64,000 bases of DNA from a virus. The position numbers were made by a program, and so were the translations under genes. This document shows positions 652-63,822 of this stretch, in pieces. Position 1 is the first letter of the stretch, and each line of letters opens with the position of its first letter. The notes under the pieces were generated by a model, which was given only the letters and a program-made list of their open reading frames with translations, ran no database searches and had not been told where the DNA came from. The stretch is taken from positions 120,467 to 184,466 of IMG/VR virus record IMGVR_UViG_3300021181_000006; one strand, given 5' to 3'.

Positions 652-1118
652 GATCAAACTGATAGTAGCTTTTCATTGCTACACTCGTGTAGCAATGGTT
701 TTCTAGAGTTAGTTTCTGGCTTGTCTCATACATCCAGAAGTCACTAGAATAACAATAGACATTAAATTCTATACCCGCAAGGGAGAGCCACGAGAACGTC
801 GCATCGTGGTTAGTATGAGCGTGGCTCGGTTCAGTGGGGTCATGGTTTATCAAAGCTTTCCATACGGTTTAACTGAGATCGTATGGCGCAAACTTACCTT
901 CCTGTCGGTGGTGAGCGATAGAGTCCCTTGGTGGTGATCCCATTAAGAATTCTCACAGTTGCAGGGTATATGGATGTCTAGGCTCCTTGGAGTTCCGACC
1001 ACACACATATATCTGAGTGACCAGACAGGAATTTTTTCCCGCTGCTTTCCGTAGGCAGGCTCAACGGGTTGTGGGGAGTATCTCGGTGAGCGAGATACTC
1101 CCCAATACGGAGTTTTTT
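645..1118 (+). ncRNA. candidate large structured non-coding RNA (~470 nt)
   Basis: No coding frame on this strand fits the stretch, yet it is full of helices: a 10-bp hairpin with CTCG loop (674-683/688-697); nested TTCTAG/CTAGAA (701-706/744-749) and TTCTGG/CCAGAA (714-719/734-739); GAGCCACG/CGTGGCTC (785-792/820-827); CCATACG/CGTATGG (860-866/880-886); nested CCCG/CGGG and CTGC/GCAG (1038-1068). It starts after a promoter-like box and ends in a 13-bp hairpin with a T-run. I do not recognise it as tmRNA, RNase P or 6S RNA. Large ornate phage RNAs such as ROOL and GOLLD are known, but I cannot match this to them. The helices are seen directly; the RNA is inferred. Confidence 0.5.
1073..1118 (+). 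terminator. terminator: 13-bp perfect hairpin plus T-run
   Basis: GGGGAGTATCTCG (1073-1085) pairs perfectly with 1091-1103 across a 5-base loop. A T-run (1113-1118) follows nine bases later and runs straight into AGGTATAAAA. It would end the candidate RNA on its left and resembles the terminator-promoter units at 40.9-45.0 kb, although the hairpin-to-T spacing is longer here. Confidence 0.6.
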
Positions 1119-1130
1119 AGGTATAAAATA
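1113..1130 (+). promoter_or_regulatory. promoter-like TTTTTTAGGTATAAAATA
   Basis: The box matches the recurring TTTTAGGTATAAG element immediately after a terminator hairpin. It touches the ATG at 1131. If it acts as a -10 element, transcription would start inside the first codons of that gene, so the real start could lie downstream or translation may use read-through RNA. Confidence 0.5.
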
Positions 1131-40644: not shown

Positions 40645-40670
40645 CTTTTGGTATAAGCTATATACACACC
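40645..40670 (+). promoter_or_regulatory. promoter-like TTTTGGTATAAGCTATATACAC
   Basis: GGTATAAG followed by TATACACACC fits the repeated + strand element of this phage, here without a preceding hairpin. It would be the first promoter of the 40.7-45.2 kb run, serving the gene at 40712. Confidence 0.55.
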
Positions 40671-40711: not shown

Positions 40712-40915
40712 ATGCTCTTCGGAATCCCCACTCAGACCATCGTTGTCGGAGTCGTCTGCGCCGCTGCCGGTGCCATCGGTGGTGCCATGTACGCCAAGAG
40801 TGCCGCCGCTGCTGACATCAAGGCGCTCACCGATCTCAACGCCAAGCACAAGGTGGAGATCGAGAGCCTCACCAAGCTGCTCGACCAGGCCACCTCGACC
40901 AAGCGCGCTGCGTGA
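40712..40915 (+). CDS. small membrane protein with G+C-rich codons, 67 aa
   Basis: N-terminal hydrophobic Gly/Ala segment (TIVVGVVCAAAGAIGGAMYA), then a charged helix (KALTDLNAKHKVEIESL). Start ATG at 40712 with AAGGAA eight bases upstream. Almost every codon ends in C or G, unlike its neighbours, indicating either very high expression or recent import. Ends just before a 14-bp terminator hairpin. Possibly a virion or host-membrane peptide; unrecognised. Confidence 0.65.
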   Translation: MLFGIPTQTIVVGVVCAAAGAIGGAMYAKSAAAADIKALTDLNAKHKVEIESLTKLLDQATSTKRAA

Positions 40916-40920
40916 TCTGT

Positions 40921-40977
40921 TGATCATACAAACCGCAAGGTTTGTATGATCACTTAGCTATGTTTTTTAGGTATAAG
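40921..40977 (+). promoter_or_regulatory. terminator-promoter unit: 14-bp hairpin + TTTTTTAGGTATAAG
   Basis: TGATCATACAAACC pairs perfectly with its complement over a GCAA tetraloop (40921-40952). TTAGCTATG and then TTTTTTAGGTATAAG (40963-40977) follow, with TACACC a few bases on. First of the series of fused terminator-promoter elements. Confidence 0.7.
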
Positions 40978-41004
40978 TTAAATACACCACCAACAAGGAA
41001 CCCT

Positions 41005-41304
41005 ATGTACTCTCAGACTCCAGAAGAGATTGCTCATAGTATCAGTCTCCTCAAAGATGATATCCAAATCCGTATGCGTGCCATGCATTACTATCTCATG
41101 CAGCAAGGCTCTGCGATTCTGGAACGGTTTGTTCGTGAAATTCCTCCTCCAGCAACCCATGAGATGAATCAAGAACTCATCAATCTGGCTCTGCAGAGCA
41201 AGATGCATTGGGATGACATTGAGGACAAGATTTGCTTTCCGATGTCAGTCGTGCATAGGAAATACAAGGAGATCGATAGACTCATGCGAGTTAAGACACC
41301 TTAA
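41005..41304 (+). CDS. hypothetical helical protein, 99 aa
   Basis: Start ATG at 41005 chosen for AAGGAA upstream and because the promoter box lies before it. Helical with PEEIAHSISLLKDDIQIR at the start and an HTH-like end (DDIEDKICFPMSVVHRKYKEI), so DNA binding is conceivable. The stop overlaps the next terminator stem. Not recognised. Confidence 0.6.
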   Translation: MYSQTPEEIAHSISLLKDDIQIRMRAMHYYLMQQGSAILERFVREIPPPATHEMNQELINLALQSKMHWDDIEDKICFPMSVVHRKYKEIDRLMRVKTP

Positions 41305-41324
41305 TGGTGTCTTTTAGGTATAAG
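41293..41324 (+). promoter_or_regulatory. terminator-promoter unit
   Basis: AAGACACC/GGTGTCTT stem (41293-41313) merges directly into TTTTAGGTATAAG (41312-41324), followed by ATTAATACACC. The stem includes the stop codon of the upstream gene. Confidence 0.68.
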
Positions 41325-41353
41325 ATTAATACACCCTTTCTCTAGGAACTATT

Positions 41354-41710
41354 ATGCTAATCTATTATTTTGGATGCTGGGATTCCATTGGCCATCACCT
41401 CTATACACCCGGTGGTCGGTATGCAGATGATAATATTAAGAATTTATTACCATGCAAATGGGAAAATCTCGACGGTGGTTTTTCTCCAGAGGAAACCAAC
41501 ACCCAAGGGATAGCAAAGCTCACCCATATTGAAGACTGGACTATTGTTTCATTTTGGGATTATAGCGTAGATACTCGACACGGTTCCCATAGCACATTCA
41601 TTATTGATGAAATACTGGATATAGATAAAGCTTTAATGTCTGCTCGTAATGTATATCCAGACATCTTTGCTCGTTATAAGTTCCAGATCTCAGGGACCAC
41701 ACAGACGTAA
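41354..41710 (+). CDS. hypothetical phage protein, 118 aa
   Basis: Soluble alpha/beta protein starting LIYYFGCWDSIGHHLYTPGG and containing WTIVSFWDYSVDTRHGSHST. It has the look of a small phage-specific protein, perhaps a metal-binding one given the clustered His and Asp residues, but no family is recognised. It has its own promoter unit. Confidence 0.6.
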   Translation: MLIYYFGCWDSIGHHLYTPGGRYADDNIKNLLPCKWENLDGGFSPEETNTQGIAKLTHIEDWTIVSFWDYSVDTRHGSHSTFIIDEILDIDKALMSARNVYPDIFARYKFQISGTTQT

Positions 41711-41714
41711 ATAT

Positions 41715-41760
41715 TAGTATTTTTTCAGATATAAGAACATTAGAGACATATTGTCTCTAC
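41715..41760 (+). promoter_or_regulatory. variant promoter CAGATATAAG with leader hairpin
   Basis: A T-run and CAGATATAAGAACATT (GATATAAG at 41728-41735), then AGAGACA-TAT-TGTCTCT forming a 7-bp hairpin in the leader. Only a weak AAATA/TATTT stem precedes the T-run, making this the least typical member of the series. Confidence 0.5.
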
Positions 41761-41810
41761 TACAGATTCATCTTAATTGATGATATCTGATAAATATATA
41801 GGAGTTTCCC

Positions 41811-41984
41811 ATGAATGACCGTAACGACAATGATCAGAATACGGCTGGGGTTCTAGGGATTCAGTCTGAAGAAAGCATCTCGCACATGTGGGGCGATACT
41901 GACGATGATGAAGACATAGAAGATGATGAAGATGATGAAAGCGACGATGACGACTCAGACGACGGTGACGATAACGATACATAA
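41811..41984 (+). CDS. extremely acidic small protein, 57 aa
   Basis: ATG with ATAGGAG nine bases upstream. The first 27 residues are ordinary (NDRNDNDQNTAGVLGIQSEE); the last 30 are almost only Asp and Glu with some Ser/Gly/Asn (DDDEDIEDDEDDESDDDDSD). Such a tail could mimic DNA, as phage anti-restriction proteins do, or bind basic host proteins. Inference from charge only. Confidence 0.6.
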   Translation: MNDRNDNDQNTAGVLGIQSEESISHMWGDTDDDEDIEDDEDDESDDDDSDDGDDNDT

Positions 41985-42045
41985 TCACACACTTTCCAAG
42001 ACTAGAAAGATAGGTTTCCCAATGTGAACATTATTACAACTCATG

Positions 42046-42091
42046 CGTGAACCAGCTGCAATTATGCTGGTCACGTTTTTTTAGGTATAAG
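42046..42091 (+). promoter_or_regulatory. terminator-promoter unit
   Basis: Stem CGTGA(A)CCAGC / GCTGGTCACG with one bulge (42046-42075), a T7 run, then AGGTATAAG (42083-42091). The 60 bases before it (41985-42045) show no gene. Confidence 0.68.
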
Positions 42092-42117
42092 ATTATGAAC
42101 CCCAACAAGGAAACCAT

Positions 42118-42486
42118 ATGAACCTTATTATCTCGTCGTTATCCGACGTTAATCATCGTCATGCTGAAGATACCATCGTCATGAACCAGCATATCATGGC
42201 AGAATGCCATCTCACGCTCAAGGTCGCTAGAGATCCACGTGATCGATACGCAGCAACTGCAGCATTGAATGCGGCTTTCAAGCGTATTCAACTGGCTCAT
42301 AGCCTCAAACTCTTGAAAGATGATCCCATCCGTTCATCACAGATCTGCCAACAGATCGTTGAGACCCAACCAGAGGAATATCCATGTCAGATCAGAGGCC
42401 AGGTTACGTCATCGTCAGTGGTCATTCAACCGAACAGCTCAAAAAGCATGTTCTTGAAGCTCTTAAAGATGGCTACGTTCCAATAG
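42118..42486 (+). CDS. hypothetical helical protein, 122 aa
   Basis: Helical protein (AEDTIVMNQHIMAECHLTLK ... YAATAALNAAFKRIQLAHSL). The AAGGAA-ATG start is good. The last 34 residues overlap the next gene in another frame and look less protein-like (TSSSVVIQPNSSKS), so the functional protein may end near residue 90 with this tail a by-product. Unknown function. Confidence 0.55.
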   Translation: MNLIISSLSDVNHRHAEDTIVMNQHIMAECHLTLKVARDPRDRYAATAALNAAFKRIQLAHSLKLLKDDPIRSSQICQQIVETQPEEYPCQIRGQVTSSSVVIQPNSSKSMFLKLLKMATFQ

Positions 42487-42575
42487 GAGGTATAGCCGTG
42501 CTAGAATATGATCATGGATATGGACATAGCCCTGAATACGTCCAATCCATGGTCTTAAAAGAAGTCCTTCGCTAG
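42384..42575 (+). CDS. DUF1737-like small protein, 63 aa
   Basis: RPGYVIVSGHSTEQLKKHVL followed by EALKDGYVPIGGIAV fits DUF1737: a Y-x-I-V-S-G-x-S start, a helix, and G-[WY]-x-P-x-G-G-I-x-V. Family function is unknown. The AGAGGAA ribosome site supports this start despite a 103-base overlap with the previous frame. Confidence 0.65.
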   Translation: MSDQRPGYVIVSGHSTEQLKKHVLEALKDGYVPIGGIAVLEYDHGYGHSPEYVQSMVLKEVLR

Positions 42576-42593
42576 GTCTGCTCTATGCAGATC

Positions 42594-42628
42594 GAATCCC
42601 CCTACTAAGGGGATTCTTTAGGTATAAG
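42594..42628 (+). promoter_or_regulatory. terminator-promoter unit
   Basis: GAATCCCC/GGGGATTC stem (42594-42616) runs into TTTAGGTATAAG (42617-42628). A small stem (TCTGC/GCAGA) precedes it. The leader is short: ATTAAGGAG and the ATG at 42648 follow. Confidence 0.68.
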
Positions 42629-42647
42629 AACATTAAGGAGATTTATT

Positions 42648-43010
42648 ATGTTAACAGAGATTTCCGATAACTATGTTCATTGCAGTAGTCACTCTATAAG
42701 GCGACTCAGAGAAAGATTTGATTTCTTTGCCCTCAAAAGCAATTACTTCTGTATGAGATTCCTGGAGCAGAATGTAGATAAATCAGAAATAGTGATAGAA
42801 TCACGTGAAAAGCATCATCGATGGTATGGACGCACAGCTCGCTATTATCGGCATACCTATCAAGGAACTCCATTAGAGATGTTTTTCATAGTCAGCCCAG
42901 ATAATATTGTCGTCACAGTACTCACGAAAATACAGTTCCTGGCCTTAATGGAAGATACTCTTCATCTCAAAAGATATCATGCGTTGCTCTATAAGATAGC
43001 GAATGCATGA
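42648..43010 (+). CDS. protein with SxHSxxRLRxRF motif, 120 aa
   Basis: CSSHSIRRLRERFDFF near the N-terminus matches the SPHARLRLRQRF of the protein at 16345. Beta strands and VSPDNIVVTVLTK follow at the end. This layout suggests a small fold with a conserved His-Arg helix, perhaps RNA-binding. Unrecognised beyond the pair. Confidence 0.55.
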   Translation: MLTEISDNYVHCSSHSIRRLRERFDFFALKSNYFCMRFLEQNVDKSEIVIESREKHHRWYGRTARYYRHTYQGTPLEMFFIVSPDNIVVTVLTKIQFLALMEDTLHLKRYHALLYKIANA

Positions 43011-43017
43011 TCTCACT

Positions 43018-43051
43018 AAGAAGTCCCACTAGGACTTCTTTTAGGTATAAG
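43018..43051 (+). promoter_or_regulatory. terminator-promoter unit
   Basis: AAGAAGTCC/GGACTTCTT stem (43018-43040), then TTAGGTATAAG (GGTATAAG 43044-43051) and AAGGAA before the ATG at 43072. Confidence 0.68.
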
Positions 43052-43071
43052 GACATTACAAGGAATAACCT

Positions 43072-43257
43072 ATGCTCATTATATTCTGTATCCTCATCAA
43101 TTGGATGCTGATAGGCTCTTTGGGAGCAATAACATCTATTAGTCAGTTTAAGCAAGATATGTCTCTAAAAGACTATTTCATGATTTGGACTATTGCTTTC
43201 ACTATAGGACCTATTCTGTTAACAAACGTTCTTATTCAGCATATACGTAGAAAATGA
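43072..43257 (+). CDS. small membrane protein, 61 aa
   Basis: Two transmembrane segments (IIFCILINWMLIGSLGAI and MIWTIAFTIGPILLTNVL) with a polar loop and a basic end HIRRK. Coupled by ATGA to the next membrane protein. The pair may form one inner-membrane complex, for example for superinfection exclusion or host membrane change; no family recognised. Confidence 0.6.
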   Translation: MLIIFCILINWMLIGSLGAITSISQFKQDMSLKDYFMIWTIAFTIGPILLTNVLIQHIRRK

Positions 43258-43472
43258 TATGGTGCATCATCTCCTATGTGATCTTTGGAATGTGGATATC
43301 ATTCCAATGTATTATATTGGATAAATATACTGATATTGAAAGTACCGTCAAAAATAAAAAACTAATCGTTGATTACACATTCATTATTCTAGTTGTGTCT
43401 ATCTTATGGTTCCCGTTAGGGATCTTTATGGTTGGATCTGTTATCTGGGAGTTATATCACGAGAAGTCCTGA
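43254..43472 (+). CDS. small membrane protein, 72 aa
   Basis: Two transmembrane segments (MIWCIISYVIFGMWISFQCI, YTFIILVVSILWFPLGIFMV) around a charged loop. Starts in the ATGA overlap. Its TGA stop lies inside the next terminator stem. Confidence 0.6.
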   Translation: MIWCIISYVIFGMWISFQCIILDKYTDIESTVKNKKLIVDYTFIILVVSILWFPLGIFMVGSVIWELYHEKS

Positions 43473-43494
43473 ATAGGCTTCTTTTAGGTATAAG
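43463..43494 (+). promoter_or_regulatory. terminator-promoter unit
   Basis: GAAGTC/GGCTTC stem with one G-T pair (43463-43481), then TTTTAGGTATAAG (GGTATAAG 43487-43494). The leader to the ATG at 43572 is the longest of the series (about 75 bases) and contains a TATCCA/TGGATA hairpin. Confidence 0.65.
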
Positions 43495-43571
43495 ATTACT
43501 AGCGCTGCCCGATACGCAGTGTCATCTTTATCCATGTTGGATAGAGATAATCTATCGCCAAGGAGTTACCC

Positions 43572-44048
43572 ATGGCTCGTCAATATTCAAATGAAAAATC
43601 TTGCGCTGAACTGCGTGGGATCCAAATCTTTCATATCCTTCAAGGTTGTGCGTTTAACCGCATGACGAAGAATTATGAATGGCTTTCAGGCAAACTCGGC
43701 TACCCAGGCACGACTGATCTTCAGACCTCACAAGGACTTGGAGTAGGTAGAGTACTCGCATGGCCGTTAGGTCGTCTCATGTCGTGGTGCATCGATAATA
43801 AACTACCTCCCATTACCGTCCTTGTCGTGAACAAGAAGACCGGTAAGCCTGGAGTTGGTCTCGTCGGTACCACTGACTTCGATGCTGCCAGGGAAGCGGT
43901 ATTCGCTTACAACTGGTACGATATTATCGATCCAACCTTCGAGGAGTTGGCTAAGTATCGTAAAGGTAGTGAGGAGGATGTTCCTCAAGTGACCATTAAA
44001 GAGCAGTTGGGAGAATATTTCGTAGATGGTCAAACACGACGTGCCTAG
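43572..44048 (+). CDS. conserved-looking phage protein, 158 aa
   Basis: Helical N-terminus (CAELRGIQIFHILQGCAF), a middle GVGRVLAWPLGRLMSWCI, and a conserved-looking part LPPITVLVVNKKTGKPGVGL followed by DFDAAREAVFAYNWYDI. The pattern reminds me of hypothetical proteins found in mobile elements, but I cannot name a family. Strong AAGGAG site. Confidence 0.6.
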   Translation: MARQYSNEKSCAELRGIQIFHILQGCAFNRMTKNYEWLSGKLGYPGTTDLQTSQGLGVGRVLAWPLGRLMSWCIDNKLPPITVLVVNKKTGKPGVGLVGTTDFDAAREAVFAYNWYDIIDPTFEELAKYRKGSEEDVPQVTIKEQLGEYFVDGQTRRA

Positions 44049-44056
44049 ATGAATAA

Positions 44057-44092
44057 AGAAGAGTCTTAAATGACTCTTCTTTTAGGTATAAG
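44057..44092 (+). promoter_or_regulatory. terminator-promoter unit
   Basis: AGAAGAGTC/GACTCTTCT perfect 9-bp stem (44057-44080), then TTTTAGGTATAAG (GGTATAAG 44085-44092) and a leader with TTACACCATCAACAAGGAAC. Confidence 0.7.
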
Positions 44093-44124
44093 ATAGTTAC
44101 ACCATCAACAAGGAACTAACTATT

Positions 44125-44967
44125 ATGACTTCATATGCCGAACATCGCATGACGAAAAGCGTTCATGCCAAGCAGTACCTACTCAAGCAACACCCAAAAC
44201 AAAGACCAGATTCTGATACTCATATCGAAGATCTAGCCAATTTAATGCTGAAAGGTAACTTTTGCCAAGATATGAATGATGCCATTTGTATCAATACTCG
44301 CGGTGAATTATGCAATGGACAGAACCGGCTCTACGCTTTGATCAAAGCATCAGAAATAAACCCTGATATCACCATCAGAATGCTCTTCTTGCTGGATCAA
44401 GATCCTGATGCTTTCCCCTATATGGACGGCAATGGATTGGCTCGTCGCATGGAAATGCGCCTATCTTTCTTCAGATCTGAGCCTAAGTCTGTACTCAAGA
44501 AATATACTAGTCTGATCAGATTCGCCATGCGCGAACTGTATCACTTGAATCCCAAGGTCGAAATCGATGAAATCAACAAATATGCCGATAAGCATAAAGC
44601 GATCTTGGATTGGGCGACTGCTCGTGATCCTGAAGATAATAAGGCATTCGTCGGCACAGAATTCGTGATGTCCATGATAGAGATGCATCTGATGAATCCT
44701 GCGAAAGCAAGAGAATTCAGAAGGCATGTTCTGAGTGGTGCTAGTCTACCAGAGAAACATCCTGCGTTGGTTCTCCGAACATTCCTGATGGCAAACGAGG
44801 CGTCACGCCTCATGCCAAGAAGGAAAGAGATCTACTACAAGTGTATCCGGGCAGTAAAGGAATATTTGTCAGCTGGTGAAGCTGGCCAGATTCGTGGCAA
44901 CAAACTCACCATCGATGAATGGGAGGAAGAAACCTACGAAATGCTCAAGTCGATGTTTGCTGATTAA
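44125..44967 (+). CDS. ParB/DGQHR-like domain protein, 280 aa
   Basis: Residues 35-72 (IEDLANLMLKGNFCQDMNDA, then ICINTRGELCNGQNRLYAL) fit the N-terminal ParB-like/DGQHR domain found in phages and plasmids, where a G-Q-[HN]-R-L motif lies in the nucleotide-binding pocket. The rest is helical. It may act in DNA binding or as a nucleotide-dependent regulator. Here the usual DGQHR reads NGQNR. Confidence 0.6.
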   Translation: MTSYAEHRMTKSVHAKQYLLKQHPKQRPDSDTHIEDLANLMLKGNFCQDMNDAICINTRGELCNGQNRLYALIKASEINPDITIRMLFLLDQDPDAFPYMDGNGLARRMEMRLSFFRSEPKSVLKKYTSLIRFAMRELYHLNPKVEIDEINKYADKHKAILDWATARDPEDNKAFVGTEFVMSMIEMHLMNPAKAREFRRHVLSGASLPEKHPALVLRTFLMANEASRLMPRRKEIYYKCIRAVKEYLSAGEAGQIRGNKLTIDEWEEETYEMLKSMFAD

Positions 44968-44973
44968 TAGCAA

Positions 44974-45012
44974 CGAGAGGGCTCACCACCCTCTCGTTTT
45001 TTTAGGTATAAG
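44974..45012 (+). promoter_or_regulatory. terminator-promoter unit
   Basis: CGAGAGGG/CCCTCTCG stem (44974-44996), T7 run, AGGTATAAG, then TACTATACACC and CAAGGAAAC. Last unit of the series. Confidence 0.7.
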
Positions 45013-45040
45013 TACTATACACCCCTCAAGGAAACATCCC

Positions 45041-45223
45041 ATCACTCATATCGAAGCGATTAAGAAAAATAATAAAGAAATCGAGCAAACTGAGATTGCA
45101 TTTAAAAAGGCATGGAGAGCGCGTGATTCCATGAAGATGGCTCGCATGGAGGCATCGTTGAAGATTCTTCGGAAACGACATGAGCATCTCATGGCACAGC
45201 CAGAAGAGGCGAAAGCGTCATGA
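45041..45223 (+). CDS. small coiled-coil protein, possible ATC start, 60 aa
   Basis: A promoter unit and an AAGGAA ribosome site lie before it, but no ATG, GTG or TTG follows at normal spacing. The frame can begin at ATC 45041 (ITHIEAIKKNNKEIEQTEIA). The protein is a charged helix with a KASLKILRKRHEHL-like end. The alternative is a shorter product from the ATG at about 45130 (MKMARMEASL). The frame also continues upstream, without a start signal. Confidence 0.45.
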   Translation: MTHIEAIKKNNKEIEQTEIAFKKAWRARDSMKMARMEASLKILRKRHEHLMAQPEEAKAS

Positions 45224-45276: not shown

Positions 45277-46815
45277 TCAAGGACGACCCGTGTAGAATAA
45301 CTCACCTGCTAGCATGCAGTACATGGTACTATGAACTGCATCATCTGGAGTAGCAGGAGAATGATCATAATACATGATATTATCACGATTATACTCAATA
45401 TTAATAGCCAAGAAATCATCAGCAAACTTCTGATAGAGATTCCAGCTCGGAAATTCGATACGTCGCTTCTCGATGAGATTAAAGAGATCAGTCATCACGG
45501 TAGTACGCCCAATCGTGAACATCAGGCGTTCTTGGTTCCAGTTCACACGATTTTTCTGACTTCCTGAGTTATAGAACTGGCATACACGTTCTGTGCCATA
45601 ATGATCCATGAGCTTCAGATTATTATGTAATCCAGCACCCCAGTCACAACCGATGAGCTGACAGTTATACTGCTCACAGATAATCTTGATATCTTCTAAC
45701 TGGAGATTTACGTCGGCTAATTGACCTTCATATTTCTTTTGGAATAAGATCATGAACTTATCTGGATACGGCATCCATGCGCCAATAGTCAGAATAGTGA
45801 ATGACACTTCACCAGTGAGACCCCAGTCGATTCCAGCTACAGTTGGAGTAGGTAACTGAGGATCATCATGGGCATACCAGTCAGTACGATTCGGATTGCA
45901 ACAGGCACGCATGAGAGCAGTGGTAAGAGGCTTTGATCCACTATCGTATGAAAGGCCTAAAACTTCGTTATAAAATCTGTGCTGTGGATAGTTGTTAAGT
46001 TTAAAAAGAATATCACTCTTCCAATCCATCCACGATGTCTGGAGTTGGCACAGGTGAAATCCTTCAATATCTGATCCAGGATTGGTTTTAATCCATTGGC
46101 CTAGAGCAGGATAAAGACGGCATATCTGACATCTCGCGCATACTAGATAATCTTTACCGATATTCTTGAGACCCATCTCCAAATTCCAATGACCACACCC
46201 AGAACATTTATTGGCCCATTCACGTTGTGTGCTGCGAGACCAATAAAATTCTATAGCATTATTAGTGGTTTTAGGCGTGCCGCTATAAACAAATGATTTA
46301 TAAGGATGAGATTTCTCTGCTCGTGGACTATGAGAAGCAGCTTCTTCTATGACACTAAGATTAGATACCAAGATATCCTGAAGCTCGTCTACGCATATTT
46401 GATCTGCTGACAAACCGCGAGTTCTGTCAGCATTCAAGAATGCGTAGCGAATATAGATATTAGAGCCGTTTAACAGAGTTTTTTGATCGATACGATCTGT
46501 ACATGTCGAATCAAATAGATTATCTGCTATATAAGGAGAGTTTTTTAAAAAATCATTTAATCTATCGGAGCTAAAATCTTTTGATTGAGATGCAGAAGGA
46601 CTAACAAACAATGTATTAAAATATGGGATACATGCACTATTGACTGAAATACGCGCAGATAGCGATGTAGACTTTTCTGACTGACGAGCAAACTTGAGAA
46701 TTAGTCTCTGTGCTGGCGATTCGTAGATAGCCTTTAAATATGGTCTATTACTCAGATCTAAAGGTTTACCTTTTAAAAATAACATCTTACTAGCTAAAGA
46801 AAAAGGTGAAATCAT
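45277..46815 (-). CDS. terL: terminase large subunit, 512 aa
   Basis: The ATPase/nuclease that packages DNA into the prohead. ATPase: ARQSEKST (43-50) as the P-loop, with Glu where Gly is usual; Walker B ICVDE (Asp143, Glu144); coupling motif SGTP (179-182). A zinc-like insert CSGC ... CARC (204-229) follows. RNase H-like nuclease: GIDWG (Asp330), GCDWG (Asp391) and the TPDDA Asp pair near 491. The C-terminus looks complete. Its start overlaps the stop of a homing endonuclease gene (TAATG). Confidence 0.9.
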   Translation of the reverse strand: MISPFSLASKMLFLKGKPLDLSNRPYLKAIYESPAQRLILKFARQSEKSTSLSARISVNSACIPYFNTLFVSPSASQSKDFSSDRLNDFLKNSPYIADNLFDSTCTDRIDQKTLLNGSNIYIRYAFLNADRTRGLSADQICVDELQDILVSNLSVIEEAASHSPRAEKSHPYKSFVYSGTPKTTNNAIEFYWSRSTQREWANKCSGCGHWNLEMGLKNIGKDYLVCARCQICRLYPALGQWIKTNPGSDIEGFHLCQLQTSWMDWKSDILFKLNNYPQHRFYNEVLGLSYDSGSKPLTTALMRACCNPNRTDWYAHDDPQLPTPTVAGIDWGLTGEVSFTILTIGAWMPYPDKFMILFQKKYEGQLADVNLQLEDIKIICEQYNCQLIGCDWGAGLHNNLKLMDHYGTERVCQFYNSGSQKNRVNWNQERLMFTIGRTTVMTDLFNLIEKRRIEFPSWNLYQKFADDFLAINIEYNRDNIMYYDHSPATPDDAVHSTMYCMLAGELFYTGRP

Positions 46816-47474
46816 TATTTCTTTACTTTACTTAATAAAGTAAAGCCCTTTGTGCGACCACTAGACAATAAATTACCATGAGATAAAGAGTATTCTTCGC
46901 AAAATGGGTTGATAGCATCAGTCGGAATAATTTCGCCATCAGGCATCTTAATAGTATAAAGATTTTTTCGCATATTCTTCTTCATATCATCTGAATATAC
47001 TCTACCTTTATTCTTGCCCATCATAGAATTTCTAGCTTTTTCTCTAGTAGATTCCGATCTAACTGTTCCAAGTTTAGACAAACCAATATTCTTACAATGC
47101 TCTTCTGAACACTTTTTACCTAATTTAGTCACTCGACATTTTTCTATAGACTCTGGTCTATGTTTGCCATGTCCACCTCCAGTACGAAGATTATATCCAT
47201 TGTCTATGGAATTATATTGTTTAATTAAACAAATTTCTGCTCTATCAAGACCATCTTTAGACCAAGAAGATGCCAGTATGGTCACAATAAAATTGTTGAA
47301 CCCGTATTTCTTGATTGCATCACGTATTTTAGGCCGATCTTTACCTTTATAATATTCATATACATTCTGTATATAATATTGAGGATTTCTAGTCGTCTGG
47401 CCAATATAAAATTTACCACTAGGTGACTCTAGTGAGTAAATCACACCATATGGCTTCTTATCCATACCAGTCAT
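46815..47474 (-). CDS. GIY-YIG homing endonuclease, 219 aa
   Basis: The GIY-YIG core is visible as GVIYSLESPSGKFYIGQTTR (residues 10-29), the acidic residue lies in LDRAEICLIKQY, and the end NGYNLRTGGGHGKH is typical of free-standing phage enzymes such as the Seg group. The C-terminal half carries NUMOD-type DNA-binding helices (SEEHCKNIGLSKLG, TREKARNSMMGKNKG). ATG 47474 preferred over TTG 47489. AT-rich compared with neighbours and wedged directly before terL. Confidence 0.85.
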   Translation of the reverse strand: MTGMDKKPYGVIYSLESPSGKFYIGQTTRNPQYYIQNVYEYYKGKDRPKIRDAIKKYGFNNFIVTILASSWSKDGLDRAEICLIKQYNSIDNGYNLRTGGGHGKHRPESIEKCRVTKLGKKCSEEHCKNIGLSKLGTVRSESTREKARNSMMGKNKGRVYSDDMKKNMRKNLYTIKMPDGEIIPTDAINPFCEEYSLSHGNLLSSGRTKGFTLLSKVKK

Positions 47475-57292: not shown

Positions 57293-57752
57293 CTAAAGCT
57301 CGCTTGGTAGCTTTGACAGCATGATTCCGATAGTGCTCAACCGCTGCTTGCAGTTTCTCAGCATTATCGCCATGCGCCTGAGCTGTCTGCTCTGCAATCA
57401 TCAGCTTCTCTTTGAGCTTTTTAATGGTATTCTTCAGTTTATCGACATTCGAGATAAGACCAAAATTATCGTTCTCTAAGAGAGCTTTCTCATGATCTAC
57501 AGGAGTAGGCTTGGGAGCCTGTACACCTTTACCATGAAATTGAGTATTAAGCTCTGCGGTTTTATCTGCTGCGAAGTCCATGACTTTAGGATTATAGCCT
57601 TTGTCATAGACCGTGTCCATATCCCAAAGATTAATACGACGGTCACGGTTAGCCCGTGGCTTAAACTCAGTCTCTTTTGTCAGAGAAACAGACATGCCCT
57701 GCGGCACAACCTGCATGTAGTTGACTGCAGCTAATTTACTTACGGAGGGCAT
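57273..57752 (-). CDS. coiled-coil protein after RNA polymerase, 159 aa
   Basis: Starts MPSVSKLAAVNYMQ (SKLAA motif), then a basic region and a coiled coil (NVDKLKNTIKKLKEKLMIAE, NAEKLQAAVEHYRNHA). It overlaps the end of the polymerase gene by 17 bases, so it is co-transcribed with it. May be virion or polymerase associated; unknown. Confidence 0.55.
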   Translation of the reverse strand: MPSVSKLAAVNYMQVVPQGMSVSLTKETEFKPRANRDRRINLWDMDTVYDKGYNPKVMDFAADKTAELNTQFHGKGVQAPKPTPVDHEKALLENDNFGLISNVDKLKNTIKKLKEKLMIAEQTAQAHGDNAEKLQAAVEHYRNHAVKATKRALDAESPA

Positions 57753-60700
57753 CGATCATATCCTGCACATGTGATATTTTCTTCATATAAGAAGGCATAT
57801 CAACCCTCTTCATAGTTTTATCAGGCATGGTTGTAGTGGCATTACCAAACTCAGCTCCATAAGCATACCCAGGGATAGGATGAGTTCCATGGAGTTCTGA
57901 CTTCCATGATTGAGCAGCACCCTGAGTAATGGACTTCTGTAAGTGTTGGAAATTCATACGGGCTAAGAAATCGTTACTCATCTCTGGCGACAGCTTTAAT
58001 CCTTTTACAATTTCTTCGTATTGGATTGGTTTCGCCAATTCTTTATTACGGAAATCTAACTCATTGATTGGCATATAATCGCCAATAACAACATTTTTAT
58101 CAGATCCAGTATCAGTGATCTGACCGTACCGTACAATCTGACCAACAGCAGTCTCTACCAGAGGTCTACGTACAATACGGCCAGAAGCCGCATAGCTATC
58201 TACTATAGAATCAACGATATACTTCTTAGCTTCTAATGTATTCTTAAGCGCTGCTAATTCTTGAGGTTTAATATTGCCTTCAGTAAGACGATCACCCTTT
58301 AAGACTTTATCGCCTTCTTTTACAATGGGTTGCATGAGTCCGTAATGCAGTTCTCCACCCACTGATACATAATGTCCACCCTGAGGGGCTGCATTCACCT
58401 TAGTAACAGTTCCATTTACTTCAGATAAAATAGCTTTATCTTGAACGATCTTCGGCATTTCTAAGAGTTGTACCGCCTGATCAAATCCACCAATACTCTT
58501 AGCGCCAACGGATCCACCAGTATGGAATTTCTTCATGGTCAGCTGTACGGATGGCTCTGAAAGAGATTGAGCCGCAATCACGCCAATATTATCACCGATA
58601 CGAGGCAGTTTACCATCTTCACGAAGACCAAAACACATAGCACATGGAGCATTACGAGCTTTGCAGGTGAGTGGTGAACGCACTTTAAGAAAATGAATGC
58701 CTTCTGCTTTCATTCTCTTAACTAAATCTGACTTCACCAGGGTATTCGCTGCAACGCCTGGATTGCCCTTCGCGGTATAGCGATCAATGGCATGAACCAT
58801 CTCGCCATCCAGATTGACATTAATGCCTTCTGTCGTACCGCAGTCGATTTCCGTAATCTTGCCATATAATCCGCTATTAATCATTTGCTTAGAGAATGCG
58901 CCAGAATCTTCAGTAGCTAAAGCACGATCCATCATACCTTTACGCACACCAGCCATAGTGGTCCAGTATTCGCTAGCAGTTAAGCCTTCAGCATATCCAT
59001 GCTTAATCAAGATAGGAACTGGCTGCTCATTATGATCGTTCACGAACATAGGTCCAACCATCATCTGTTCGATCTGGTTTGTTTTCCCAGACAGTGACGA
59101 TTTCATCATTTGATTCAATCCAGAGTCTTTATCAGTGAGATCCTTATGGACTTCCTTGATAATGGCACTTTCCTTCATCTTATTAGCGAATGACTGTACC
59201 CATGCTACTGGATTCTTCGCTACGGCCAACTCTTGCTCCAGTTTCTGGAATTCTTTACGTACCAGAGTAGGATTGGTCAGCTTCAGGTCAGACAGACCAA
59301 AGCTAACGCCTGAACTATACGATGCTGCATTACCTAAGTCTTTGAGTTTACTAACGATAGGACCATAATCCTTCTCGTGAGTCTTAGCAATTTTATCTAA
59401 AAGAATATTGATATTCTTCTTATCGAGAGTGATATCATCATTCCGTAATTCAGTAGGTAATGCATTATTTACAAGAATACGCCCAACCGTATTCACCTTT
59501 TTACCAATAGCGACTACATCACGTACCGATACTTTATGACCTTTATAGGCATTCTCTAACTCATTAACTGAATTATAGAAGGCTACAGGAGCTGCCTTAA
59601 TAGGAGGCAGCGTCATCACATAGAGGCCATTCAACATTTCCATCGCTGGACGATGTTCTAAGGTCAGAGTCTGAGGATTATAGAGATTGCGACTTGGCAA
59701 CATACCAAATGACTCTTTACGAGCATCTTCTGATACTGGTACGTGTACTGACATCGTATCGCCATCAAAGTCAGCGTTAAATCCACCAATAACCAGAGGA
59801 TTCAGTCGGATAGACTTACCTGTAGTCATTTTAGGAATAAAGCTCATCACTGAGAACTTATGAAGCGAAGGCGCTCTGTTGATAAAAACAGGACGCTCTT
59901 TCATCTCGTTCTCAAGAGTACGCTTCGCAATATCCTTATGCTCTTCTACAGCATTACGAGCATCAATAGGATTGTAACCCAGACGTACTAAAGCACGGAT
60001 GACATGAGGACGATAGACTGTCCATGCCATCTCATCTGGAATACCAACCTCATCTAAACTGAGTTCTGGCTCTGGAATAATGGTTGAACGGCCAGAAAAA
60101 TCCTGACGTTTACTTAATACCTTGGACTGGAAGAATCCTTCTTTCGGTGAAGATCCTGCAATCTGTGTAATAAAGCCCTTCGTGTCTCGCGTTCCCTTTT
60201 TCGTCAGAGACACACCGGTACCAATAAGTGCTTTCATAGCATTATAGGTATCGAGACGCAGATTCGCTTTTTCTGAATCAGGTAAATAACTAATCGACTT
60301 CAGCTGATTATTTACTGTAATCAGGTCTTTATACAATGTATTCGCATCAGAAATAATAAGATCGCCACTCTTCTGCTGGATAATAGGACGGAACTTCGGA
60401 GGAATAACTGGAATCTTACTGGTGAGATAATCTGAGAGCTTCATTGAATTATCGCGTAACGCTTTGATATATCTCATCTTACGATTGATTTTATCTAAAC
60501 TCTCTAACTTAGCTGTCTTTGCCTCGCTATTCAGATGGCTGTATTCAGTATCCAGATTAATACGATCCATCATACGCTTGATAGCTAACCCGCCTGAAAC
60601 AGATCCAGGTGTCTCTGTCGTCGATAGTTCACCAGAACGATTAACAAAGGCTTTATGTGAAAGAATATCATTAAATTCTTTCTTATCGATACCTAAGATG

Positions 60701-63700
60701 GTAATAATAGCATCTTCATACATGGGCATCGGCATCGGCTCGGCCAGCTGGATATGAGACCATTTATCCCCAGCTAATCCGCCAGTCAACTTCAAATCAA
60801 AAAGACCACCAGCTTCTGGCTCTAAATCCTTCGATTTTACAGCTTTAGCTTCAGTGACTTCACCATGTGACATCTTCGTGACATCAGCTTCTGTAACTGG
60901 AATCAAATGGATCGCATCATTACGACGCTCCATATTGACGCCTGATGCCGCTAACATGGCACGGAACTTATCAAATACGAATGGCACCTTCGGAGAAGGT
61001 AATGGCAGACCAGACTGATAGGCATTCCAGAAGTCATCCGACTTCTCAGATTTAAAGGTAGCCATTTCCTTCAGATTATGGTTTGCGCCATGGGCTAACA
61101 TCGAGTACAGCGTAAGCTGATCCATACTCTGACCACCTACACCACCACCAGATGATGGCTGCATATTCAGTGTATAACCATCTTGACCACGAGATGAGAA
61201 TTTTTTACGAACTGCATGATCCAGCTTCATGATATACTGCTGACCGGTCTGGATAGGATTATCCAACTTCTTGCCAGTAGTAGGATCAGTCACAAACTCT
61301 TTATCTTGGAGTTTATGTTGTTTTAACTCTCCAATTATTTTATCTAAGTAGTTAGTCGAACTGAAATTATCAGCGATATACGGATGGCCCGTCTTCTCAG
61401 CAATCTTTGATGCACCAAGTTCCAAGTTCTGAGACGGATTAATACGTCCAGGAACCGAATGTGGATTCAGATAGACATCAATTCTACGACCAGAATCAGT
61501 AACCAGTGCTTCATTATCTGGAATAATCTTCGAGATAATCCCCTTGTTTCCATGGCGTCCACTGAGTTTATCGCCCAGCTTCATGACTTCTTCAGTCTGA
61601 ACCTGGACCTCAACTGACTTAGGACCACGAACAATACGAACTACCTTACCACGGTCTTCTTCATTCCACTCAATGGAACGATTCTTCATCGGTCTTACAG
61701 CTGATTTTTTAAAAGCACTCAGGATGATATCGTCCTTCGTCAGCTCTTCTTTATGCAGATGAACAATAAGAGGATCACCGAGTTCAACGGTCTCACCTTG
61801 TTTAATGATGCCTTCTGAGTCTAATTTAGCGAGCTGAGCAGACGTATAAGCGGTAGGATAATTAGCGATGAATTTCTTCTTATCTAAGAAGCTATTCACA
61901 TCTAATTCCAGATTCTCTTTATACATATGCTCTGATGTCAGCTTCTTAGAAGCTGATTCAGTGATAACCACACCATCTTCAAGCCCATGACCCTTATAGG
62001 ATACATAGCCTACATTGAGATTCGTGCCTAAAGCTAACGTATCGCCTTTATTAAAGTTCAGTTCAGCGATAGTTTGGCCAGCTTTGACTTTATCGCCAAC
62101 CTTTACAAGAGCTTTATGATTAAGATACTGCTTAGAACGTAAAGGGAAGTTGTTATACAGATAATGAGGATCATTCCCGATATAAATCTCATCAGGTGTT
62201 ACCTTAGTTACCACGCCAGCGGATTTAGATGATACGTTCTGACCTTTGCCAATATAGTCTTCAAAGGTTGTGTTATTACCGAACATGCTCTGTACGAGAG
62301 GAGCCTCACGATACTTCAGAGGTAATGCCTGCTCCATCTGTTTACCAGCAAAGGCAGCACGATTACCGGAGTTCGATTGTAAGAATGGCGCTAAGTTCGA
62401 AGCGAAGTCAAACATCGCCTTATCTGATGGCAGAATGTATTCCACTGACTTCGCTGGTACTTTATGGAGTACACCACGATCACAGGCTGATACCATCGCA
62501 TGTTTTGGAGTTCCATCTGCATGAAACTCATCAGCAAAGCTAATAATAGCATTGGCTGATTGATCAACGCGCAACTTCTCAAACTTGCCAGTCTTCAAAT
62601 TCTTTAAGTGAGTAAAGAGATCATTACCCTCTTTTAAAGCACCAATAGCCATGTGCTGGGTAACGCCCACATCCTTTTCAGGGGTATGGACAGGATCAAT
62701 AAATCCCAGCTGTGATGGATGAGCCATACGAGCTTCATCAGTAATCGAATGATGGTTCTCAATGCCACCTTCTCCAGAGATCACGACTTTATTTGTCTCA
62801 CCGATCATATTGAGCGGATTAATCTGCTCTGTGGTAGACGATAAGCTACTCTGAGTAAAGAAGCTTTTGATAGGCTTTCCGATGAGTGATGCATTGATGA
62901 TAAGACGTACATTCTCACGTTTATCAACGTTATTACGAATCTTCATCTTAATCTCAGGAAGTTTCTTCATGAAACTATCGTAGACGAAGTCATCAACTGA
63001 TCTGATAATCTTAAACTCTAAAGAGTCACGTTCATCTTGCTGCGATGTACCTCTGTTAATATCGAGTAATCTCTTACTCGACATCAGTAATACTTGAGGT
63101 GATAACGCATCTTGACCCTGTAATGTTTTAGTGGTAACACGAGGATCCAGTTTCAGTTTAGAAAGCCAAAGACTAGCAGTAATAGCGTCTTTACCAGCTT
63201 TACCGAATGATGTCTTATCAAGCTTTGCTAACTCAGCTTCAGGAGATGATTTGCTGTTCTTCAGCGACATCTCATAGGTCTCTTTACCCCAGGCAGTTTG
63301 GATCTCCTGAGGTGTAACACCTAATCCGATGAGTAATGGCAGCAGCTTAATATTCAGAGTTCCCTTTTCCAACTTAAATACAGCTGTCTCAGGATCGAAT
63401 AAGATCTTTGCCTGGAAACCTTTTACGTTGATAAAGGACTCTAATTCACCGTTCTCTTTGACACGATGAAAAATACCAGGACGTAACAGGAGCTGATTTG
63501 CTACCTGATATTCGTTGCCATCAATGATATAGGATCCGCGAGGAGTGATTCGTGGTATATTTCCTAACTTCATCTTTGCGTTACTAATAACCTTTTTAGT
63601 AAGATTATCAGTTAAAGTGGCTGTACCAACGATAGGAGAACCAAAAGTTCCACCCTTGAGTTTGAGATCCATCTGCTCTTTGTAGTTCTCATTTGAGAGA

Positions 63701-63822
63701 TCTTCTACATGGAGATTAGATACTACTAAGGTATGAACCTTGCCTTCAATAGGAAAAATCTGACTAATAGCTTGAAGAGCTTTGCTCTTCATATTCTCAT
63801 ACTGCTGCTGGAAGTTCTGCAT
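57736..63822 (-). CDS. single-chain DNA-directed RNA polymerase, beta-beta' fusion, 2028 aa
   Basis: Transcribes DNA with both large subunits in one chain. Beta part (1 to about 960): GLEDGVVITESA (about 615), GDKLSGRHGNKG (750-761), NPHSVPGRINPSQNLE (about 790), GGGVGGQSMDQLTLYSML (about 900). Beta' part (about 970-2028): PMPMYED region, GRSTIIPEPELSL (about 1250), the catalytic NADFDGD (1349-1355) binding Mg, a Zn site RSPLTCKARNAPCAMCFG (about 1715) and QLTMKKFH of the trigger loop region (about 1765). The N-terminal beta' zinc-binding domain of bacteria is missing: no CxCxK start is seen. No sigma, alpha or omega gene was recognised in the window. Start is ATG at 63822. Confidence 0.93.
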   Translation of the reverse strand: MQNFQQQYENMKSKALQAISQIFPIEGKVHTLVVSNLHVEDLSNENYKEQMDLKLKGGTFGSPIVGTATLTDNLTKKVISNAKMKLGNIPRITPRGSYIIDGNEYQVANQLLLRPGIFHRVKENGELESFINVKGFQAKILFDPETAVFKLEKGTLNIKLLPLLIGLGVTPQEIQTAWGKETYEMSLKNSKSSPEAELAKLDKTSFGKAGKDAITASLWLSKLKLDPRVTTKTLQGQDALSPQVLLMSSKRLLDINRGTSQQDERDSLEFKIIRSVDDFVYDSFMKKLPEIKMKIRNNVDKRENVRLIINASLIGKPIKSFFTQSSLSSTTEQINPLNMIGETNKVVISGEGGIENHHSITDEARMAHPSQLGFIDPVHTPEKDVGVTQHMAIGALKEGNDLFTHLKNLKTGKFEKLRVDQSANAIISFADEFHADGTPKHAMVSACDRGVLHKVPAKSVEYILPSDKAMFDFASNLAPFLQSNSGNRAAFAGKQMEQALPLKYREAPLVQSMFGNNTTFEDYIGKGQNVSSKSAGVVTKVTPDEIYIGNDPHYLYNNFPLRSKQYLNHKALVKVGDKVKAGQTIAELNFNKGDTLALGTNLNVGYVSYKGHGLEDGVVITESASKKLTSEHMYKENLELDVNSFLDKKKFIANYPTAYTSAQLAKLDSEGIIKQGETVELGDPLIVHLHKEELTKDDIILSAFKKSAVRPMKNRSIEWNEEDRGKVVRIVRGPKSVEVQVQTEEVMKLGDKLSGRHGNKGIISKIIPDNEALVTDSGRRIDVYLNPHSVPGRINPSQNLELGASKIAEKTGHPYIADNFSSTNYLDKIIGELKQHKLQDKEFVTDPTTGKKLDNPIQTGQQYIMKLDHAVRKKFSSRGQDGYTLNMQPSSGGGVGGQSMDQLTLYSMLAHGANHNLKEMATFKSEKSDDFWNAYQSGLPLPSPKVPFVFDKFRAMLAASGVNMERRNDAIHLIPVTEADVTKMSHGEVTEAKAVKSKDLEPEAGGLFDLKLTGGLAGDKWSHIQLAEPMPMPMYEDAIITILGIDKKEFNDILSHKAFVNRSGELSTTETPGSVSGGLAIKRMMDRINLDTEYSHLNSEAKTAKLESLDKINRKMRYIKALRDNSMKLSDYLTSKIPVIPPKFRPIIQQKSGDLIISDANTLYKDLITVNNQLKSISYLPDSEKANLRLDTYNAMKALIGTGVSLTKKGTRDTKGFITQIAGSSPKEGFFQSKVLSKRQDFSGRSTIIPEPELSLDEVGIPDEMAWTVYRPHVIRALVRLGYNPIDARNAVEEHKDIAKRTLENEMKERPVFINRAPSLHKFSVMSFIPKMTTGKSIRLNPLVIGGFNADFDGDTMSVHVPVSEDARKESFGMLPSRNLYNPQTLTLEHRPAMEMLNGLYVMTLPPIKAAPVAFYNSVNELENAYKGHKVSVRDVVAIGKKVNTVGRILVNNALPTELRNDDITLDKKNINILLDKIAKTHEKDYGPIVSKLKDLGNAASYSSGVSFGLSDLKLTNPTLVRKEFQKLEQELAVAKNPVAWVQSFANKMKESAIIKEVHKDLTDKDSGLNQMMKSSLSGKTNQIEQMMVGPMFVNDHNEQPVPILIKHGYAEGLTASEYWTTMAGVRKGMMDRALATEDSGAFSKQMINSGLYGKITEIDCGTTEGINVNLDGEMVHAIDRYTAKGNPGVAANTLVKSDLVKRMKAEGIHFLKVRSPLTCKARNAPCAMCFGLREDGKLPRIGDNIGVIAAQSLSEPSVQLTMKKFHTGGSVGAKSIGGFDQAVQLLEMPKIVQDKAILSEVNGTVTKVNAAPQGGHYVSVGGELHYGLMQPIVKEGDKVLKGDRLTEGNIKPQELAALKNTLEAKKYIVDSIVDSYAASGRIVRRPLVETAVGQIVRYGQITDTGSDKNVVIGDYMPINELDFRNKELAKPIQYEEIVKGLKLSPEMSNDFLARMNFQHLQKSITQGAAQSWKSELHGTHPIPGYAYGAEFGNATTTMPDKTMKRVDMPSYMKKISHVQDMIDALRK

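What the first reader, a model, noticed from the sequence alone, without database searches (positions are those of the whole stretch)
40921..45012. Serial terminator-promoter units before almost every gene of the 41-45 kb run
At 40921, 41293, 42046, 42594, 43018, 43463, 44057 and 44974 a hairpin with a different stem each time is followed immediately by the same TTTAGGTATAAG box, a TACACC-like start and CAAGGAA. Stems differ in sequence but are conserved as stems. The T-run of the terminator is the upstream part of the promoter. Polymerase would stop and restart at each gene, giving each gene its own dose. Related units occur at 601 and 1073; a looser one lies at 41715.
Basis: partly seen in the sequence, partly recalled or inferred. 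Interest (0 to 1): 0.8.

Follow-up and report, generated by a model that had tools for sequence, protein, structure and literature searches.

The report
Phage terminators fused to promoters
In one stretch of a large, uncultured bacterial virus nearly every small gene is preceded by a stop signal for transcription welded directly onto a start signal, and the start signal turns out to be shared by a wide group of viruses that carry their own RNA polymerase.

Summary
Eight exact TTTAGGTATAAG boxes lie at the stated places, all on the + strand; none appears in 100 shuffles. Seven of the eight abut a stable hairpin; the first (40921) has a 10-nt gap, 41715 has no hairpin, and 601 has no box. GGTATAAG behaves as a -10 element: -1 is T in 9 of 10 units and +1 is A in 10 of 10, leaders are mostly 13-26 nt, and the genome holds 19 copies on + against 1 on -. 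The box recurs, equally strand-biased, in Salmonella phage Arash (30:1) and in 18 of 40 IMG/VR records encoding a related multisubunit RNA polymerase; Vibrio phage D69 uses GTTATAAG. Relatives keep a -35-like element; here it is missing and a terminator hairpin occupies its place. Fusion is frequent only here and in the nearest relative found (17 of 43 boxes against 6 of 156). The phage encodes a fused beta-beta' polymerase and two sigma factors, the likely readers. Best reading: composite terminator-promoters giving small genes independent transcription, like the PeSL cassettes of T4-like phages but with another promoter type. Unproven: termination in vivo, which sigma reads the box, separate 'doses', direct polymerase hand-over.

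The parts
40921..40952 (+). 14-bp hairpin, then a 10-nt gap and a T6 run before the box (unit 1, not abutting)
40966..40977 (+). box TTTAGGTATAAG; predicted +1 at 40984; 21-nt leader to ORF 41005-41304
41293..41313 (+). terminator hairpin, dG -11.1, abutting
41313..41324 (+). box; +1 at 41331; 23-nt leader to ORF 41354-41710
41724..41735 (+). looser box TTCAGATATAAG without upstream hairpin; +1 at 41742; 69-nt leader to ORF 41811-41984
42045..42076 (+). terminator hairpin with T7 tail
   Evidence: 40-nt fold -16.6, z -5.0
42080..42091 (+). box; +1 at 42098; 20-nt leader to ORF 42118-42486 (and overlapping ORF 42384-42575)
42594..42616 (+). terminator hairpin
   Evidence: z -3.8
42617..42628 (+). 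box; +1 at 42635; 13-nt leader to ORF 42648-43010
43018..43040 (+). terminator hairpin
   Evidence: z -4.3
43040..43051 (+). box; +1 at 43058; 14-nt leader to ORFs 43072-43257 and 43254-43472
43461..43483 (+). imperfect terminator hairpin, near-duplicate of 43018
   Evidence: dG -8.6, z -1.3
43483..43494 (+). box; +1 at 43501; 71-nt leader to ORF 43572-44048
44055..44082 (+). terminator hairpin
   Evidence: z -6.3
44081..44092 (+). box; +1 at 44099; 26-nt leader to ORF 44125-44967 (phrog_5931, unknown function)
44972..44998 (+). terminator hairpin with T7 tail
   Evidence: z -6.2
45001..45012 (+). box; +1 at 45019; the frame downstream (to 45223) has ATC where an ATG is expected
40646..40657 (+). 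first box of the run, TTTTGGTATAAG, no abutting hairpin; +1 at 40664; ORF 40712-40915
1073..1127 (+). related unit: 13-bp hairpin, spacer, T6, box TTTAGGTATAAA
57736..63822 (-). fused beta-beta' RNA polymerase, 2028 aa, catalytic NADFDGD motif; candidate core enzyme

Best explanation
Each unit is a composite terminator-promoter. The hairpin and its T-run end the transcript of the upstream gene. The same T-run, followed by A-GG-TATAAG, is the core of a promoter that starts an RNA about 7 nt after the box and gives the next small gene its own short leader. The promoter belongs to an early- or middle-type class used across a group of phages with their own multisubunit RNA polymerase; it is most likely read by one of the phage's own two sigma factors, on the phage or the host polymerase. 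In relatives the class has a -35-like element. In this lineage that element has been lost and a terminator hairpin occupies its place, so the promoter should depend on its extended -10 element alone. The effect would be insulation: each accessory gene is transcribed largely on its own and does not read into the next. Shown: box, hairpins, strand bias, spacing, conservation, genes for polymerase and sigmas.
For: Exact repetition; 19:1 strand bias; -1 T in 9 of 10 and +1 A in 10 of 10 units, leaders 13-26 nt for 6 units; hairpins at 9 of 17 non-coding GGTATAAG boxes here against 12 of 400 random non-coding positions; own arms pair at 96%, swapped arms 48%. Box conserved: Arash 30:1, D69 GTTATAAG 18 on its early strand and in 16 of 72 upstream regions of that strand, 18 of 40 RNAP-bearing IMG/VR records with at least 8 copies and at least 4:1 strand bias (my cut-off). 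-35-like element: best match of 5 or more of 7 at 14 of 24 sites in D69, 13 of 20 in G018, 11 of 30 in Arash, but 5 of 19 here (control 15%). Fusion in the nearest relative found: 4 of 16 boxes in G041, 4 of 10 in G042. RNAP and two sigma genes. No excess of host-like sigma-70 promoters in the run (8 found, 11.6 expected).
Against: No RNA data. One unit has a gap, one a weak stem, two looser units no abutting hairpin. Most T-runs hold only four Ts before the A, weak by enterobacterial standards (own knowledge). Both sigma factors are candidates: the one with region 4 would be expected to use a -35 element, which is absent here, while Pfam sees no region 4 in its counterparts in Arash and D69, whose promoters do have one. 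22 of the 40 RNAP-bearing records do not show the strand-biased box. G041 and G042 were found by searching for the fused motif, so they are ascertained for at least one unit each. GGTATAAG also occurs at 2 coding sites of 19 in this phage.
Confidence: 0.78

Rival explanations
1. The boxes are ordinary extended -10 promoters of the host housekeeping sigma; the phage sigmas serve other classes.
For: TATAAG is one base from TATAAT and is preceded by G at -14, as in extended -10 promoters (own knowledge of the consensus). A phage needs some genes read before its own sigma is made.
Against: G at -7, where the housekeeping consensus has T, is the prevailing base, and the box is shared by phages of different hosts (Salmonella, Vibrio). 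The relatives' -35-like element is TTAATAA-like, not TTGACA. Host-like promoters are not enriched.
Confidence: 0.17
2. The units are kept chiefly as recombination linkers: short shared sequences at gene borders that let small genes be swapped or gained, as proposed for PeSLs of T4-like phages; their transcriptional effect lets an inserted gene work anywhere.
For: The 11 ORFs of the run have no match in six compared genomes and no second copy in this one; three units share a 17-nt stretch including the stem's 3' arm. PeSL-mediated shuffling is described in passages of PMC4503421.
Against: The missing matches do not set the run apart: only 17 of 152 other genes of similar size have one. No two strains with swapped content were available. 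Not exclusive of the best explanation.
Confidence: 0.3
3. The hairpins are not terminators but protect or process the 3' or 5' ends of a long joint transcript; polymerase reads through.
For: Short T-runs (mostly TTTTA) and one weak stem. D69 has small hairpins at the predicted 5' ends of its leaders (seen by eye).
Against: Hairpin and T-run adjoin as in intrinsic terminators in 7 of 8 units, and fused units in G041 have longer T-runs.
Confidence: 0.15
4. The box acts in RNA or DNA for something else (protein-binding site, replication or packaging signal).
For: Strand bias alone would fit other directional signals.
Against: Fixed place just upstream of start codons and T then purine at -1/+1 in several phages.
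Confidence: 0.04

Closest known systems
PeSLs (promoterEarly stem-loops) of T4-like phages (Arbiol 2010, Comeau 2014; content recalled, papers not held; mentioned in passages of PMC4503421)
   Same: Stem-loop terminator next to a phage promoter between small non-essential genes; repeated many times.
   Different: PeSL promoters are host sigma-70 early promoters (recalled). Here the box is TATAAG with no detectable -35 element, belongs to phages with their own RNA polymerase and sigmas, and the T-run directly abuts the extended -10.
phiEco32 gp36 middle/late promoters (tAATGTAtA, single element; passages of PMC8948821)
   Same: Single -10-like element with a GTATA core, start 6-8 bp downstream, read by a phage sigma; no -35.
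Early promoters of phiKZ-like jumbo phages (passages of PMC7598289)
   Same: AT-rich element around -10 upstream of genes of phages with their own multisubunit RNA polymerase.
   Different: Those polymerases work with unrelated factors (AR9 gp226) or no known sigma; here bacterial-type sigmas and a bacterial-type fused polymerase are present.
mReC phages (Weinheimer and Aylward 2020, PMC7481178; abstract and passages)
   Same: Caudovirales encoding beta and beta' related to cellular RNAP.
   Different: That paper does not use the words promoter or sigma in its main text, so the box is not described there; tree placement was not tested here.

Membership tests
PeSL | stem-loop terminator adjoining a phage promoter, repeated between small genes | tested here: met
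   (sequence only)
PeSL | host sigma-70 early promoter (recalled) | tested here: not met
   box TATAAG without TTGACA; no excess of sigma-70-type sites
PeSL | mediates gene shuffling between related phages | not testable with these tools
   no close strain found; 11 of 11 ORFs unmatched in 6 genomes is only compatible
PeSL | T4-like phage | tested here: not met
   nearest named relatives by terminase and other proteins are Arash and D69; own multisubunit RNAP
sigma-dependent promoter | -10 element with purine start about 7 nt downstream | tested here: met
   (sequence only)
sigma-dependent promoter | mapped transcription start | not testable with these tools
   no RNA data
intrinsic terminator | GC-containing hairpin directly followed by a T-run | tested here: met
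   7 of 8 exact units; unit 40921 not
mReC-type RNAP phages | beta and beta' homologous to cellular RNAP on a Caudovirales genome | tested here: met
   terminase
mReC-type RNAP phages | RNAP branches within the mReC clade | not tested
   no tree built

The most novel reading that the evidence does not exclude
The fusion is a relay. A polymerase that ends a transcript at the hairpin stops with its footprint over the next -10 box, and, as bacterial polymerases do in recycling termination, stays on the DNA, picks up the phage sigma and starts the next gene without leaving. A train of one-gene transcripts is then made by the same polymerase, linking the rates of neighbouring genes without a joint mRNA. 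The lost -35 element would make such promoters poor at recruiting free polymerase and good at catching one delivered by termination.
Probability: 0.13. Interest if true: 0.88.

Novelty: new variant of a known kind. Interest (0 to 1): 0.62.

Why it matters
It gives a group of polymerase-encoding phages a concrete, testable promoter with two candidate sigmas. It also shows a promoter class in which a -35-like element appears to have been replaced by a terminator, a natural arrangement for studying how termination and re-initiation are coupled, and a compact design for insulating small genes.

Tried and rejected
Chance: rejected. Known RNA families in the run: no match at gathering score; three sub-threshold archaeal snoRNA hits inside an Asp/Glu-rich ORF. 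The -35 element hidden in the hairpin loop: the loops (TTAAT, TTAAAT, TGAATA) resemble TTAATAA, but by my count they lie about 5 nt too close and at varying distance; not supported. A late-strand box: TAAAATA(TA) lies on the structural-gene strand of D69 and Arash but not in this phage, whose late promoters I did not find. Direct homologues by DNA: none in phages; single-protein scans of IMG/VR with the terminase and the 44125 protein gave none; motif + TACACC in IMG/VR gave 3 stretches that look like chance and in bacterial genomes 4 scattered stretches that I did not examine further. G043 (RNAP 39%) has only 1:1 boxes, and G044 has no RNAP match. The 44125 protein was sought in G041/G042 without a match. 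The g67 sigma was sought in 9 records: matched in 3, not in G041, G042, G043, G044, G001 or G017. Sigma-70-like promoters: no clear excess in three genomes. The TTTTNGGTATAAG search of 40 records gave 25 places in 11 records, 6 of the 24 examined with a hairpin. No structure was predicted.

Rows dropped before counts: boxes inside predicted coding regions (2 of 19 here, 2 of 18 in G041, 1 of 11 in G042), boxes within 50-60 bases of an end; one of 25 loci was not recovered because of its orientation. The gene calls are from my own simple caller, not a curated annotation. G019/G020, G028/G029 and others among the 40 records may be near-duplicates; I did not dereplicate. G041 and G042 come from one metagenome (same IMG number) and may be one phage.
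Full report
The window is bases 120467-184466 of a 184,466-base virus record. The run at 40.6-45.2 kb is a + strand island between two - strand blocks that hold the terminase and other late-type genes. Its nearest named relatives by terminase are Salmonella phage Arash (32%) and Vibrio phages D69, D181 and D148 (30%).

Check of the observation. TTTAGGTATAAG occurs exactly 8 times in the window, all + and all in the run; 100 shuffles gave none. The record has 10, and GGTATAAG is 19:1 in favour of +. Seven of the eight boxes in the run directly follow a hairpin of -8 kcal/mol or better; the first has a 14-bp hairpin 10 nt away from its T-run. The six innermost pairs are 96% complementary within units and 48% when arms are swapped between units (9 units), so the stems are kept as stems while their letters change. 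Two of them (43018, 43463) are near-duplicates, and the second has an imperfect stem. The TACACC and CAAGGAA words are in 4 and 5 of the 8 units (read). The site at 601 has no box within 3 mismatches; the one at 1073 does, in the spaced form.

What the box is. With TATAAG as -12 to -7, the base before the expected start is T in 9 of 10 units and the start is A in 10 of 10; the distance to ATG is 13-26 nt in six units and 48-71 nt in three. The same spacing, and mostly a T then a purine at the start, hold in relatives: Arash (GGTATAAG 30 on its replication strand, 1 on the other; 21 of 95 upstream regions), D69 (GTTATAAG 18, in 16 of 72 upstream regions), and the unnamed records G018, G038, G001 and G030. 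An alignment of the RNA polymerases brought 93 relatives from IMG/VR, of which 80 were kept; I searched the 40 whose records are 50 kb or longer. By my cut-off of at least 8 copies and a strand ratio of at least 4, 18 of 40 show the biased box; the reversed control pattern meets that cut-off in none. The other 22 do not show it. I read this as a promoter class of a part of this phage group. It is not in the main text of the paper that described RNAP-encoding Caudovirales (words promoter and sigma absent); a literature search for the octamer with 'phage' and 'promoter' counted 57 papers, of which the 20 titles shown had no bearing.

What is special here. In D69, G018, Arash, G038, G001 and G030 a TTAATAA-like element is enriched at the -35 position (14 of 24, 13 of 20, 11 of 30, 10 of 32, 13 of 29 and 12 of 34 sites with at least 5 of 7 matches, controls 5-15%); in this phage it is not (5 of 19, control 15%). 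Instead a hairpin with a T-run fills that place. Counting non-coding boxes with a hairpin of -8 or better within 12 nt and at least 4 T in 9 nt, I found 9 of 17 here, 4 of 16 in G041 and 4 of 10 in G042, against 0 of 29 (Arash), 2 of 21 (D69), 1 of 17 (G018), 1 of 30 (G038), 2 of 27 (G001) and 0 of 32 (G030): 17 of 43 against 6 of 156, Fisher p about 1e-8. G041 has the closest polymerase found (46% over residues 2-1408, also a single 2018-aa frame). G041 and G042 were found by looking for the fused motif, so the comparison is biased for at least one unit in each; this phage alone (9 of 17) against the six others (6 of 156) remains clear. In D69 the terminator, where present (5 of 21 boxes), ends 14-28 nt upstream of the box, that is, about where or before the -35 element lies. 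A simple path is that relatives already have a T-rich spacer upstream of the -10, so a hairpin placed before it makes a terminator, at the cost of the -35 element (inference).

Who reads it. The window encodes a single 2028-aa polypeptide with both beta and beta' domains and the NADFDGD motif (window 57736-63822, -). In Arash and D69 the homologous sequence is split inside beta' (1525 + 606 and 1527 + 609 aa). The record also has two sigma factors: g67 (264 aa, regions 2 and 4; G000 76740-77534) and g41 (236 aa, region 3 and part of region 2, no region 4 found; G000 46438-47148, in a - strand block). Arash and D69 each have both counterparts, though Pfam sees no region 4 in their g67-like proteins. 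Because the box is shared by phages of different hosts, prefers G at -7, and lacks TTGACA, I favour a phage sigma. Which one is open: g67 lies on the same strand as the boxed genes and has region 4, but boxes here lack a -35; g41 lacks region 4, as does the phiEco32 sigma that uses a single-element promoter, but lies on the strand of the late-type genes.

How it probably works. Transcription from one unit runs through one or two small ORFs and ends in the next unit's T-run, which is itself the upstream part of the next promoter. This insulates each gene. That the dose differs from gene to gene is possible but not shown. The most novel reading is that the terminating polymerase is handed straight to the next promoter. 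Bacterial polymerases do stay on DNA after hairpin termination and restart at a nearby promoter, whereas T7-like single-subunit phage polymerases do not (abstract and passages of PMC11347151); this phage has the bacterial type. Nothing here tests it.

Known or new. Composite terminator-promoters between small phage genes are known as PeSLs in T4-like phages (recalled; mentioned in passages of PMC4503421; the original papers are not held). The arrangement works like a PeSL but is not one by lineage or promoter type. I call it a new variant of a known kind, with what looks like a new, widely shared promoter element beneath it.

Noticed in passing
window 57736-63822 (-); L021 30093-34670 and 39441-41261: Beta and beta' of the RNA polymerase are fused in one 2028-aa frame here (also one 2018-aa frame in G041), while Arash and D69 split the enzyme inside beta'.
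   Followed up: partly
D69 and Arash, structural-gene strand (L019-L026): A second motif, TAAAATA(TA), in D69 with an invariant A about 7 nt after the hexamer, precedes late-type genes: a probable late promoter class, not seen in the window's phage.
   Followed up: partly
window 45034-45223: The frame after the last unit has ATC where the start ATG would be (CAAGGAAACATCCCATC; compare G000 104371, same words with ATG): a decayed gene or an unusual start.
   Followed up: no
D69 leaders after GTTATAAG; window 41742-41760 and 43502-43522: Many D69 leaders, and two here, contain a small hairpin at or near the predicted 5' end of the RNA.
   Followed up: no
window 42118-42486 and 42384-42575: Two plausible ORFs overlap by 103 nt in different frames.
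   Followed up: no
window 44125-44967: 280-aa protein of phrog_5931, unknown function, the only family match among the 9 run proteins scanned against PHROGs.
   Followed up: no
G044 (record of L388): 21-kb record with 11 GGTATAAG on one strand, some 7 nt apart in tandem, without an RNAP match.
   Followed up: no
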